NCBI GenBank assembly: GCA_003152225.1
Contig: PLZQ01000456.1
Location: 1 to 32,474 of the forward strand
Source: Limisphaerales bacterium
Lineage (GTDB): Bacteria > Verrucomicrobiota > Verrucomicrobiia > Limisphaerales > UBA8199
Direction of reading: 5' to 3'
DNA length: 32,474 nucleotides
Position numbers and translations under genes: made by a program. This document shows positions 6,171 to 32,474 of this stretch, one piece after another. The notes under the pieces are model-generated. The model was not told the DNA's origin, did not search any database, and saw only the letters and a program-made list of their open reading frames with translations. How positions within the stretch are numbered: the stretch's first letter is position 1; every line of letters begins with the position of its first letter.

Positions 6171-6191
6171 GCGGTCGCAAGCCGAATTGAA

Positions 6192-6294
6192 GGTAAGGCG
6201 CGCTGTCCTCGGCGCGACGCGGGAGATCGCTAACACCTGCACCTTCCGGACAGGTTCGGACGTTCACCGCGCGCCGAGGACAGAGCGCCTCACC
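6192..6294. repeat. long imperfect inverted repeat after rpsT (element A)
   Basis: The arms are 6192-6216 and 6270-6294, 25 nt each, matching at 23 of 25 positions. The arm core is CTGTCCTCGGCGCG. The 53-bp centre has a minor 5-bp hairpin (acctg/caggt). There is no T-run after it, so it is not a textbook intrinsic terminator. Its build resembles element B at 12125-12210: outer GCG, middle C/T-rich, inner GCGCG, and a position right after a stop codon. Confidence 0.8.
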
Positions 6295-6399
6295 ACTTAT
6301 TGCTTGGAGCGACGCGTCCTCCCATTCTCATTCCCGTCGTGACTGGTCTTTATCGGCGCGAGGGGAAGTGGCGCCAGCCGCGTTGAAATTTGGGTTGTT

Positions 6400-14285: not shown

Positions 14286-14582
14286 GGACGCCTCGCTAAA
14301 ACCGTCTCCGTCAGAAGTGGCATGAACATGCGGTTCGCACCCGCACTCGTTGTCACGCCGCAATACACTAAATCTGGGGTCAGCGCTCTTTCCGATGGAA
14401 GGGTTACTGGGCTTGCCGGAAGGATCACGCGCCAAGCGATGCCCCGGCTCTGGCCCTTTACCCGTCTCCTGCGTCTCGGCGACCCATCCGAACCCAGCTT
14501 GGCACCCCAAACCGTCGAGCCGCTGGCCTCCGATTCCTCCAACCCTGCACCCGAACCTCCCGCGGGAGTCTCCCCGTAGTAC

Positions 14583-14601
14583 CTCTTATCGCCGATAAGA
14601 G
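14583..14601. repeat. 8-bp hairpin
   Basis: CTCTTATC (14583-14590) and GATAAGAG (14594-14601) pair perfectly around the loop GCC. Confidence 0.75.
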
Positions 14602-14606
14602 ATAAG

Positions 14607-27060: not shown

Positions 27061-28449
27061 TCAGGGGTGCTGCCCAGAGGACGGTATTGTTTGATGGGCG
27101 GTCGGTGGCCCGGGTAGGCCGCCGACGGCTTTGTTGAGGCCATACTGCGCTTTATTGTATTCGGCCAGCGCCGTTAGATAGTCAGAACGCGCTTGCGTCA
27201 GTTCTTGCTGGGCCTGGATATCTTCCAGCACGACGCCCACGCCGTACTGTTTGCGCTCGCGCGTCATCCGCAAGGTTTCGTTGGCTGTCGCCAGGTTCCG
27301 CTGGGCGATGGCAATTTGCGCCCACAAGGATTGCATCCGGGTCAAGTTGACGACGACTTGTAAGATAATGGTATCCTTGAGCTTCGCCTCGCCCAGTCGG
27401 GCCGATGCCAGCCGGGCTTTGCCCGCATTGACGCGCCCGGAGTCAAACAGCCCGCCGGGTCCAATCCGCCAACTCACGCCCAAGAGGTAATCCCCTTCGG
27501 CGCCGAAGTTGCCGGAGCCGCCGTCCGGTCCGCCCCCCAGCCCGCCCCCAAACGCCTGAGCCCCTACCGAGGGAATAAGCGGACCATAGACCGCCCCATT
27601 CCTGGCCGCCCGCGCCGCCGAGACGAACGCTTGGCTTTGTTTCAGTTCGGGTCGCGTCCGCAGCGCCTGCTCCACCAGCCCATGCATCGAAGCATTGGTC
27701 TCGAAGAGCGTGATGGGTGCTAGCAAGGTGTCCTGCGGGACCAATTCCACCGTTGAATCCAAATGCAGAATCAGCGCCAGCTCCGCCGCGGCCACACGCT
27801 GCCGTTCCAGTGCCTGGCGGAGGGTAATCTCGTAGCGTTCCGTTTGGGTTTGGACGCGCAACTCGTCTCCTTTGAAGACAATGCCGGACGACACCGCTGC
27901 GTGCAGTTGTTGTTGATAATCACCGGATGTCTTCAGCGCTTCCCTGGCTACCTCAACCAGGGCGCCGGCCTTGGCCAGATCAAAGTATCCCTGCGCCGCG
28001 CTTAACGTGGAGTCCTGGCGTTGCGCCTCCAACGCCTGGTCTGATGCTTTGACAAGTTGCTTCGCTGCGAGCGACTTGTAGATGGCATCGCCGAGGTCCA
28101 TCTGCGCCGTGACCGCGCCGCCGGGGTTATAGGACTGAAAGTGGGCATCCGAGATGGTTCCAGCCGGGACGGCCTGGGCTACTCCATCGCGGCGGTGATA
28201 CGCGGCGCCCGCGGTAATCCATGGGAAGAACTGCTCCTGCGCGCTTCGGCGGTTGGCCTGCAATTCGTTAAGCCGCTCGCGCGCCAGTTGAATGTCGAGA
28301 TTTCGCGCCCCCGCCAGCCGTAGAGCGGTCGGTAAGTCAATCGGATACGACGTCTCGTTGGTCGGCTGCGCAGAGACCCATCCCAGGCTGGCCACCAGCA
28401 CACCCGCCGCGTAAATCGTAAATCGTAAATCGCAAATCTCACTTCTCAT
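27061..28449 (-). CDS. TolC-family outer membrane channel
   Basis: Outer-membrane efflux protein of 462 aa, third gene of an RND tripartite operon. It has a signal peptide, then two repeated long-helix regions typical of OEP: IDLPTALRLAGARNLDIQLA, ARERLNELQANRR, and late in the protein NLTRMQSLWAQIAIAQRNLA with AQQELTQARSDYLTALAEYN-KAQYGLNKAVG. A Gly-rich loop (FGGGLGGGPDGGSGNFG, about 300-316) lies between them. The ATG overlaps the adaptor stop by four bases (ATGA), which fixes the start. The first codons (IleCysAspLeuArgPheThrIleTyr) are encoded by a 7-bp tandem array, so the leader is repeat-derived. A helical channel through the outer membrane is expected. Confidence 0.92.
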   Translation of the reverse strand: MRSEICDLRFTIYAAGVLVASLGWVSAQPTNETSYPIDLPTALRLAGARNLDIQLARERLNELQANRRSAQEQFFPWITAGAAYHRRDGVAQAVPAGTISDAHFQSYNPGGAVTAQMDLGDAIYKSLAAKQLVKASDQALEAQRQDSTLSAAQGYFDLAKAGALVEVAREALKTSGDYQQQLHAAVSSGIVFKGDELRVQTQTERYEITLRQALERQRVAAAELALILHLDSTVELVPQDTLLAPITLFETNASMHGLVEQALRTRPELKQSQAFVSAARAARNGAVYGPLIPSVGAQAFGGGLGGGPDGGSGNFGAEGDYLLGVSWRIGPGGLFDSGRVNAGKARLASARLGEAKLKDTIILQVVVNLTRMQSLWAQIAIAQRNLATANETLRMTRERKQYGVGVVLEDIQAQQELTQARSDYLTALAEYNKAQYGLNKAVGGLPGPPTAHQTIPSSGQHP

Positions 28450-29615: not shown

Positions 29616-32474
29616 TCACGCCGCGCCCGCAGCCGAGCCTTGGGCGTCATCCGGGTGCAGGGACGCCGATCGTCGGTGCGCCGGCCCTTGGATGAGCGCG
29701 AACGCTGCCGGCAAGACCAGCAGTGTCGCCATGGTAGCAAATGCCAATCCGCCGATTACGGCTTGGCCAAGCGGGGCTGTCTGCTCCCCACCCTCACCCA
29801 AGCCCAGCGCCAGCGGCACCATGCCCGCGATCATGGCCAGGCTCGTCATGAGAATCGGCCGCAACCGGCTACGTGCCCCCTCCACCGCGGCCTCCGCCGC
29901 CGAGAGTGGGGTAGGGGTCTCGCCTGCCTCCCCAGACACGGGCAGGCGAGACGCCTGCCCTAATCTGGCGCGCTCGGCAAAGGTCACCAGCAGGATAGCG
30001 TTCGCCACTGCCACCCCAATCGCCATGATGGCCCCCATGAACGATTGGATGTTAAGCGTCGTTCCGGTCGCCCACAGCATAACGACCACCCCCGCAATCA
30101 CCGCCGGCGTCGTCACCACCACCAGGAATGATAGTTTCAGAGACTGGAAGTTAGCCGCCAACAGAAGAAAGATCACCACTACAGCCAGCAGCAACCCGGC
30201 GCGCAAGCCGCCCAGCATCTGTTCCAATGGCACGATCTGCCCGCGCACGGCGACGTTCACGCCCGCCGGTGGCGTCCCGAGTTCCTTCACTCCAGCGATC
30301 ACCTGCCGTGCTACGGTGCCGAGATCTGCCCCGGCGATGTTGGCCGTCACGGTAATCATGCGCTGCATGTTGTAGCGTTGATACTGGCCGACGGCCGTGC
30401 CTTCGGTGACCTTGGCCACATTGCGCAGCAACGTTCCCTGGCCGTCGTGATTCATGACCGGCACGTTTCGTGCCTGCTCCAGCGAATCCATCTGCGCCTG
30501 CGGAATCTGCACCTGGATTTGGTAGGAAACGCCGCTGTTAGGGTCAGCCCAATAGTTGGGGACTACAAATCGGCTCGACCAGGTCGCCGTCACCAACGAC
30601 CGTGAGACGTCAGACATCTTCACCCCCAGCAACCCGGCCTTCTGGCGGTCCACAGTCACGTCCACGGTCGGATAATCGAGCGACTGGCCGAATTGCACGT
30701 CCCGCAGGTGCGGAAGCCGTTGCAACCGGTCTTTGATGGTTTGCGCGAACGCACGGTTGGACGCCAAGTTCGGGCCGCTCACCGCCACCTCGATCGGCGT
30801 CGGCGACCCGAGGCTCATCACGCGGCTCACGATATCGCTCGGCTCAAAGGAGAAGCTCACCTCCGGCATCTGCGCCGTGAACTTCCGGCGCAGGCGCTCC
30901 TTCAACGCCTCGATCCGAATGGGTGCGCCCTTCTTCAACTGCACCTGCAACACGCCCTCCTCCGGTCCGCCGTTCCACAAATAGATCAGGTTGATCGGGT
31001 AATTTGCCCCATGCACTCCCACAAAACCGAGTGTTATCTCCACGTTCTGCGGGCCGGCTTCCTGTTTAATCAATTCCAGCGCCCGCAGTGCGACGGCCTC
31101 CGTGCCATCGATCTGCGTGCCCGCCGGCGCGCGCAGCCGCACTTGGAGCTGCCCTGCCTCCACCCGCGGGAATATCTCGGTCCCAAGCCCGCGCCCGATG
31201 AACGCAATGATGACCCCTGTGATCACGAGATACGCTGCCGCCACCAGCAAACGCCACCCCACCACGCGACGCATTAGTCCGGCATAACCGCGCTGAAATC
31301 GCGCGAACCCACCTTTGCTGGCGTCTCGGCCTTCCACCGCCTGCTCGTGGCCGCGCAGCACCCAGACCGACAGGATCGGCACCAGGGTACTCGACAGCAG
31401 ATAAGAGGCGACCATGGAGAAGCCGACGGCCAGCGAGAGCGGAAGGAACATGGCCTTGGCCGCACCCACCATGAACAACGCGGGCGTGAACATCGCCAGG
31501 ATGCAGAGCATCGCCAACAAACGGGGCCCGGCGGTTTCAGTGGTCGCGTCCAACGCGGCGCGTCCTAGCGACTTGCCACGCGCGAGATGGACATGGATGT
31601 TCTCAATCGAGACCGTGGCCTCGTCCACCAGGATGCCCACCGCCAGGGCCAGACCGCCCAAGGTCATAATATTGACGGTCTGTTTAGTGATCCATAGCGC
31701 CAGCACCGCGCTCATCAACGAGAGGGGAATGTTGATCACCACGATGAATGCGCTGCGCCAATCCCGCAGAAAGAGCAGAATCATCAACCCGGTCAGCATA
31801 GCCCCCAGGGCGCCCTCCAGAGTCAACCCCCCGATCGCTCGCGTCACGTAGGGCGACTGGTCAAATTCGTAGCTCACCTTCACATCCGCCGGCAGCACGC
31901 TCTGGAACTTCCCCAGGTTCTGCTTCACCAGGTTGACCACCGACATCGTCGAGGCATCCGAGCGCTTGGTCACCGGGATATAGACCGTGCGCCGGCCATT
32001 CACGAGCGCGTAGCTGGTCAGGATGTCCGAGCCGTCCACTACCGTCCCGATGTCGCGCACGAACACCGTCGGATAGACGCCTGTGCGGATCGGCACGCTC
32101 GCCAGGTCCTGGATGTTCTTGACCACCGAATTCAACGGCACCATGGGATACTTGCCGCCGATGGGCATATTGCCGGACGGGCTGATAAGGTTCGCCGCCG
32201 TAATGGCCGAAACGATCTCATCCGGCGCCATGTTCAAGGCGCGCAGTCGCTCGGGCTTCACGTTGATCAAAATGCTCCGGGCGCTCCCGCCGAACGGCGG
32301 CGGCGCCGACACGCCCGGCAGCGTCGCAAACAGCGGCCGCACGCGGTTTAGCGCCAGGTCCTGCATCTCACCCACCGTCCGCGTCTCGCTCGAAAATACG
32401 AGGTCGCCCACCGGCACGCTCCCGGCGTCAAACCGCATCACGAACGGCGGCACCGTCCCGGGCGGCATGAACGC
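29616..32474 (-). CDS. RND-superfamily efflux pump, 5' end beyond the window
   Basis: Inner-membrane proton-driven pump, first gene of the tripartite operon. It is truncated by the right edge: the frame is open to 32474, and the visible 950+ residues begin inside the first porter domain ([15 protein letters not shown]), so about 100-130 N-terminal residues are missing. Visible features are [20 protein letters not shown] (TM4, where AcrB has Asp-Asp, here Asp-Glu), a TM block to residue ~430, a second porter domain, and the C-terminal TM block with [20 protein letters not shown]. About residues 830-855 ([20 protein letters not shown]) look like an insertion before that motif, encoded by a palindromic repeat. 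Substrate is unknown; this Asp-Glu subgroup is not AcrB-like in TM4. Confidence 0.93.
29917..29960. repeat. REP-like palindromes translated inside the RND pump
   Basis: GTCTCGCCTGCC (29917-29928) and GGCAGGCGAGAC (29941-29952) are perfect 12-nt inverted arms. The second arm also starts a tight hairpin, GGGCAGGCG-AGA-CGCCTGCCC (29940-29960), with 9 perfect pairs. The frame stays open and codes for an extra loop of roughly 20 residues. Confidence 0.85.

What the first reader, a model, noticed from the sequence alone, without database searches (positions are those of the whole stretch)
29917..29960. Palindromic element translated within the RND pump
A compact palindrome pair (perfect 12-nt arms plus a 9-bp hairpin) lies in frame in the pump gene just before the conserved [14 protein letters not shown] segment, adding about 20 residues compared with what I expect for RND pumps. 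This parallels Rickettsia palindromic elements, which insert in frame into protein genes. A pump that tolerates this at a cytoplasmic loop would be a natural insertion experiment.
Basis: partly seen in the sequence, partly recalled or inferred. Interest (0 to 1): 0.6.

Follow-up and report, generated by a model that had tools for sequence, protein, structure and literature searches.

The report
Mobile palindrome inside an efflux pump
A short repeated DNA palindrome (a REP doublet) has inserted in frame into the gene for a bacterial efflux pump and is translated as extra residues in a floppy inner loop; related bacteria carry other palindromes in that same loop, so the gene is a natural insertion experiment, although palindromes inside genes were already known.

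Summary
Window 29906-29963 holds two facing GTRG-tagged hairpins (GTGG-GGTAGGGGTCTCGCCTGCC, 12-nt spacer, GGCAGGCGAGACGCCTGCC-CTAA). They are read in frame on the minus strand as residues ~838-858 of an AcrB/CusA-type RND pump, a net +16 residues over the loop of most orthologues. The hairpin is a dispersed repeat: 97 matches (<=3 mismatches) in the 8.4-Mb draft genome against 9 for the reversed control. So this is a REP doublet (BIME/REPIN-like) of the GTAG superfamily, not a Rickettsia palindromic element, though it behaves like one. About half of the copies examined lie inside genes (DnaE, UvrA, Mfd, LigA, PheT, UbiD, HisC, RsmA). Intragenic GTAG REPs, notably in Verrucomicrobia, were reported in 2013 (PMC3733652), so the kind is known. 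New is the recurrence: in Limisphaerales about twelve orthologous pumps carry palindromic inserts of about five sequence families in the same TM10-TM11 loop; the tree needs 9 changes of state (at least 7 on well-supported branches). Seven inserts start at the same nucleotide, three 4 nt later. Likeliest cause: RAYT-type spread plus selective filtering to a disordered cytoplasmic loop. Target preference, or one old insertion followed by REP turnover, is not excluded.

The parts
29906..29928 (+). Left REP unit: GTGG head (29906-29909) plus hairpin GGTAGGGGTCTCGCCTGCC, 2 mismatches from the genome-wide hairpin
29929..29940 (.). 12-nt spacer between the two units (TCCCCAGACACG)
29941..29963 (-). 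Right REP unit: hairpin GGCAGGCGAGACGCCTGCC, an exact match to the family, then CTAA, a decayed CTAC (complement of the GTAG head)
29901..29963 (-). Codons translated from the element: [21 protein letters not shown] (residues 838-858), TM10-TM11 loop
29616..32474 (-). RND efflux permease carrying the insert (952 aa, 5' end missing at the contig edge)
28446..29609 (-). HlyD/CusB-type membrane fusion protein, next gene downstream of the pump
27061..28449 (-). Outer membrane efflux protein (OEP), third gene of the tripartite pump cluster

Best explanation
Shown: a two-unit GTRG-tagged REP (an inverted doublet, BIME/REPIN-like), one of a family dispersed in this Limisphaerales genome, sits in the reading frame of an RND pump gene, where orthologues have a shorter loop. 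The frame stays open and the pump has an added unstructured segment between TM10 and TM11. Shown: other members of the order carry palindromic inserts of other sequence families in the same loop, on separate branches of the pump tree. Inferred: REPs are spread by RAYT/TnpA-REP-type tyrosine transposases acting on single-stranded hairpins. Insertions that stop or shift the frame or break the fold are lost; those in disordered cytoplasmic loops, read in a frame without stops, survive as near-neutral passengers. The copy here is old, with two hairpin mismatches and a decayed right head. No regulatory or transport function of the insert is claimed.
For: Dispersed repeat: 97 matches at <=3 mismatches against 9 for the reversed control; 53 against 1 at <=2 mismatches. 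Paired, inverted copies with GTAG/GTGG heads are visible in aligned copies. Orthologues without the insert. Recurrence; 9 changes of state on the tree, at least 7 forced by starred branches; all insert-bearing rows as one clade rejected, p-AU 2.4e-59. Two pumps of one genus differ by a 42-residue insert (G145 has it, G143 lacks it) with flanks 95% and 93% identical in DNA. The other REP-like long inserts of the pump fall in the TM4-TM5 loop (residue ~299) and the TM6-TM7 linker (~376-396). Copies in the same genome lie in frame in DnaE, UvrA, Mfd, LigA, PheT, UbiD, HisC, RsmA, and PDB homologues of DnaE, HisC, RsmA and LigA show gaps at the REP-coded segment. The frames used are VGQASRLP and S(R/G)AGVSPA; the frame that gives a stop or WGRRLAC was not seen in genes with family support. 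Loop modelled as disordered.
Against: No RAYT gene next to this REP family was found: the one intact RAYT-like gene (C56, 374 aa) has about 40 remnants, none beside a copy. Seven inserts share the exact start nucleotide, more precise than tolerance alone needs. No expression or protein data. The assembly is a draft MAG (563 contigs, 89.8% complete, 5.9% contamination).
Confidence: 0.85

Rival explanations
1. Target preference: REP transposition favours a sequence or hairpin at this point of the pump gene, so that different REP families land at the same nucleotide.
For: Seven of ten inserts start at one nucleotide and three exactly 4 nt later, across about five sequence families.
Against: Loops without insert show no shared GTRG-like word at that point: 5 of 45 in the order, 6 of 63 elsewhere. 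REPs of this genome land in many unrelated genes. The G143/G145 pair differs by a local replacement of about 33 nt, not a clean insertion.
Confidence: 0.25
2. One old REP insertion in the pump of an ancestor, later replaced by other REP families through gene conversion or REP turnover, and lost in most lineages.
For: Explains the shared start nucleotide. G000 and its 87%-identical sister G011 seem to share a decayed version, and G054/G055 share one.
Against: The tree would then need many losses: 52 of 68 rows of the order have no insert; one clade is rejected, although that does not exclude one gain with many losses. No row outside the order carries the insert.
Confidence: 0.25
3. Horizontal exchange of pump gene segments spreads some of the inserts between lineages.
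For: G124 and G050, in different families and different places of the tree, carry nearly identical inserts whose hairpin occurs only once in each genome.
Against: Most other inserts differ in sequence between lineages and several belong to repeat families of their own genome.
Confidence: 0.3
4. The insert has been recruited for a function (for example regulating pump turnover or docking a partner).
For: The frame has stayed open although the copy is old.
Against: Inserts differ in sequence and length (28 to 70 residues in the loop segment) among orthologues and are predicted disordered.
Confidence: 0.05
5. It is a chance palindrome or a native loop.
For: High G+C sequence makes short hairpins common.
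Confidence: 0.01

Closest known systems
GTAG-tagged REPs and intragenic REPs (Di Nocera et al. 2013, PMC3733652)
   Same: GTRG head, short hairpin, inverted dimers, in-frame copies of about 20-30 codons, many in DNA replication and repair genes; [quoted passage not shown] The paper also reports different REPs at about the same site of recB in two Xanthomonas species.
   Different: Different hairpin sequences and order (Limisphaerales); host gene is an RND pump; the same loop is occupied in many more lineages than the recB case.
BIME / REPIN (inverted REP doublets) with RAYT/TnpA-REP (PMC8266576, PMC2817692, PMC3116915)
   Same: Two REPs facing each other; GTAG (or GTGG variant) next to the hairpin, the motif contacted by TnpA-REP.
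   Different: No cognate RAYT adjacent to this family was found; the copy lies in a coding region.
Rickettsia palindromic elements (RPE; Ogata 2000, as cited in PMC3767692) and Wolbachia WPE
   Same: Palindromes inserted in frame in protein genes; PMC3767692 notes RPE-4-type and WPE copies in the same region of the biotin ligase gene of Rickettsia and Wolbachia.
   Different: RPE-4/6 repeats are tagged CGTC (PMC3733652), RPEs were described as 100-150 bp (PMC3767692); this one is GTRG-tagged and 58 bp.
RND permeases CusA/ZneA/AcrB
   Same: Same fold and domain order.
   Different: Extra 16 residues in the TM10-TM11 loop; ZneA has a 15-residue gap there.

Membership tests
GTAG REP | short palindrome of about 20-40 bp next to a GTAG-type tetranucleotide | tested here: met
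   Family consensus GTRG + GGCAGGCGTCTCGCCTGCC over aligned copies; in the pump copy one head is GTGG and the other decayed to TTAG
GTAG REP | many dispersed copies in the genome | tested here: met
   97 matches against 9 in the control
GTAG REP | predominantly extragenic | tested here: inconclusive
   Of 37 stretches examined, 17 lie in ORFs with a family match; the rest intergenic or ambiguous. A simple coding score, not a gene caller, was used
BIME/REPIN | two REPs in inverted orientation | tested here: met
REPtron | REP flanks a RAYT gene of the same genome | tested here: not met
   RAYT-like genes and remnants present, none beside this REP; contig ends hide some flanks
GTAG REP | cleaved and joined by a TnpA-REP | not testable with these tools
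   needs biochemistry
Rickettsia palindromic element | in-frame insertion into protein genes | tested here: met
Rickettsia palindromic element | CGTC tag (RPE-4/6 type) | tested here: not met
   heads are GTAG/GTGG; the CGTC criterion is from PMC3733652
RND permease (HAE/HME) | full-length match to RND models and fold | tested here: met
   (5' end truncated by the contig edge)

The most novel reading that the evidence does not exclude
The TM10-TM11 loop codons of this pump are a preferred landing site for REP elements: different REP families, in at least seven lineages, insert at one nucleotide or 4 nt from it, making it a natural site-specific target in a protein gene.
Probability: 0.2. Interest if true: 0.7.

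Novelty: new member of a known kind. Interest (0 to 1): 0.5.

Why it matters
Palindromic elements read as protein are best known from Rickettsia, which has small, decaying genomes. Here the same behaviour appears in large genomes (up to about 8 Mb) of Limisphaerales, with several REP families and many essential genes. The pump gives a set of natural insertions of different sequence and length at one loop, with near-identical empty and filled pairs, so tolerance, target choice and REP turnover could be tested directly. It also warns that annotation may mistake REP-coded peptides (VGQASRLP, RAGVSPA, DRRDACPT) for conserved protein features.

Tried and rejected
A hairpin scan near RAYT-like genes found no GTRG hairpin. 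Three of the PF01797 hits (C519, C205, C18) have short ORFs of about 150 to 190 aa, the two read in full being 147 aa and IS200-like rather than RAYT-like. The idea that host codons supply the GTRG head was tested and not supported. The insert of G113 (L203) is long but not clearly a REP and was not counted as one. AU tests on two subsets of insert-bearing rows did not finish. The ORF calls in L005, L012, L026 and L046 were set aside as ambiguous.

Full report
What is there. Window 29906-29963 contains two hairpins facing each other: GTGG followed by GGTAGGGGTCTCGCCTGCC (29906-29928), a 12-nt spacer, and GGCAGGCGAGACGCCTGCC followed by CTAA (29941-29963). Chance is not an explanation: the hairpin matches three times in the window where 0.03 is expected, and in the whole 8.38-Mb draft genome 97 times at up to 3 mismatches against 9 for the reversed pattern, with 12 exact places. 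Aligned copies show the family's form: (A/G)(A/G)AGTRGGGCAGGCGTCTCGCCTGCC, spacer, and its inverse ending in CYACTTT or similar. This is a GTRG-tagged REP, mostly as inverted doublets.

Where it sits. The minus-strand ORF 29616-32474 is an RND permease, 952 aa with the 5' end lost at the contig edge, followed by a HlyD/CusB-type fusion protein and an outer membrane efflux protein. The element codes residues about 838-858. In an AlphaFold model made with 39 orthologues (mean pLDDT 75) residues 839-858 have no secondary structure and low confidence (38 for block 841-850), between helices 809-838 and 859-890. The model matches CusA and AcrB; from the known topology of those pumps this loop, TM10-TM11, is cytoplasmic. 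That last step is inference.

Orthologues. Pumps from 40 relatives and 80 named genome loci were collected, then the order was searched: 83 of 320 genomes have an orthologue at E <= 1e-75. From VTFAER to RLRP, 104 of 132 distinct sequences have 28 residues; the window has 44. So the insertion is real, net +16 residues, replacing a few ancestral codons.

Recurrence. Long inserts at the same place occur in other Limisphaerales: G011, G050, G053, G054, G055, G115, G124, G145, G157, G158, and a short single-hairpin one in G091. The DNA of most shows a GTRG head and hairpins, of about five families: GGCAGGCGTCTCGCCTGCC, GACAGGCTTCCAGCCTGTC, GGCTGGCTCTCCGAGCCAGCC, GGCGGGCTGTCCTCAGCCCGCC with GGCGCGCTGAGGACAGCGCGCC, and GGGAGGCATCCTGCCTGCC. 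In G054 and G011 only part of the pattern is recognisable. Several of these are repeats in their own genomes: GACAGGCTTCCAGCCTGTC has 58 matches in G053, 14 in G157, 8 in G115, none for the reversed controls; the GGCGCGCTGAGGACAGCGCGCC type has 32 in G055 and 17 in G054. The GGCTGGCTCTCCGAGCCAGCC element of G050 and G124 is single-copy in each, which fits an old copy or exchange between lineages.

Independence. On a tree of 139 pumps built without the loop columns, 11 long-insert rows need 9 changes of state, at least 7 forced by well-supported branches. One of these 11 (G113) is not clearly a REP. Holding the ten REP-bearing rows together as one clade is rejected, p-AU 2.4e-59; this does not by itself exclude one early gain with many losses. 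The window and its sister G011 probably share one insertion, as do G054 and G055. G143 and G145, of one genus, are the clearest pair: flanking DNA 95% and 93% identical, 42 residues more in G145. Outside the order, none of 68 rows whose phylum or lack of kinship code sets them apart carries a long insert except one Verrucomicrobiota row that is G011 under its public name.

Position. Seven inserts begin at the same nucleotide and three exactly 4 nt later. Other long inserts of the pump cluster in the TM4-TM5 loop (residue ~299) and the TM6-TM7 linker (~376-396), again loops on the cytoplasmic side by AcrB topology, plus a few in a periplasmic stretch near residue 680 that do not look like REPs. 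This pattern fits filtering by tolerance, but the exact shared start also fits target preference or turnover at an old site. A shared GTRG-like word in empty loops was looked for and not found.

The rest of the genome. Of 37 element stretches examined with a simple codon score, 23 lie wholly inside positive ORFs; four of those were set aside as ambiguous, and 17 lie in ORFs with a Pfam or NCBIfam match: NuoL, an N6-methylase ORF, a beta-propeller/phosphoesterase ORF, DnaE, a second DnaE-type polymerase, PheT, UbiD, UvrA, a glycoside hydrolase, Mfd, an MG2-domain protein, LigA, a second AcrB-type pump, HisC, a lipid A acyltransferase-type protein, RsmA and the window pump. Alignments with PDB homologues show the REP-coded segment as an insertion in DnaE, HisC and RsmA and a 3-residue one in LigA. 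Frames used are VGQASRLP or S(R/G)AGVSPA; the third frame, with a stop or Trp-Gly-Arg-Arg-Leu-Ala-Cys, was not seen in the supported genes.

What is known. Di Nocera and colleagues (PMC3733652) described GTAG- and CGTC-tagged repeats, with intragenic copies in several species, most GTAG ones in the verrucomicrobium Opitutus terrae, many in DNA replication and repair genes, and one case of different REPs at about the same site of recB. RPE-4/6 of Rickettsia belong to the CGTC group. TnpA-REP recognises GTAG beside a hairpin (PMC8266576). The finding is therefore a member of a known kind; what goes beyond it is the number of lineages and families at one loop. A cognate RAYT was not found: one intact RAYT-like gene and about 40 remnants exist, none beside a copy.

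Verdict. Observation confirmed; interpretation supported as an analogy, with the element filed as a GTAG REP doublet. Interest 0.5.

Noticed in passing
window 6193-6296: A second REP-like doublet of another family (GTAAGGCGCGCTGTCCTCGGCGCG ... CGCGCCGAGGACAGAGCGCCTCACC), apparently intergenic, just downstream of a reading frame ending near 6171; related to the palindromes in the pumps of G054 and G055.
   Followed up: partly
window 14576-14604: An isolated GTAG-headed hairpin (GTAGTACCTCTTATCGCCGATAAGAGATA); about 0.35 such hits are expected in shuffled sequence.
   Followed up: no
L034 77-1201 and about 39 other places in the genome: One intact 374-aa RAYT-like tyrosine transposase and about 40 matches, mostly short remnants, in the same genome.
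   Followed up: partly
L043 673-3039 (minus strand): A second AcrB-type pump of the same genome carries an in-frame palindrome coding VAAGKMPAAT.
   Followed up: partly
L199 and L205, TM6-TM7 and TM10-TM11 regions of the pump: Other repeat-like peptides in pump loops (for example PLSPHPMGGEELPS...PLSPLDGERAGVRG, and SPSQEGSSPVGGERQLPSREGAGVG), suggesting further palindromic elements of a different kind.
   Followed up: no
L102, L113, L116-L121 and similar loci: Close relatives of this pump (about 60-66% identity) occur in Bradyrhizobium and in records titled Klebsiella pneumoniae or Gammaproteobacteria; the latter titles may be misassigned MAGs.
   Followed up: no
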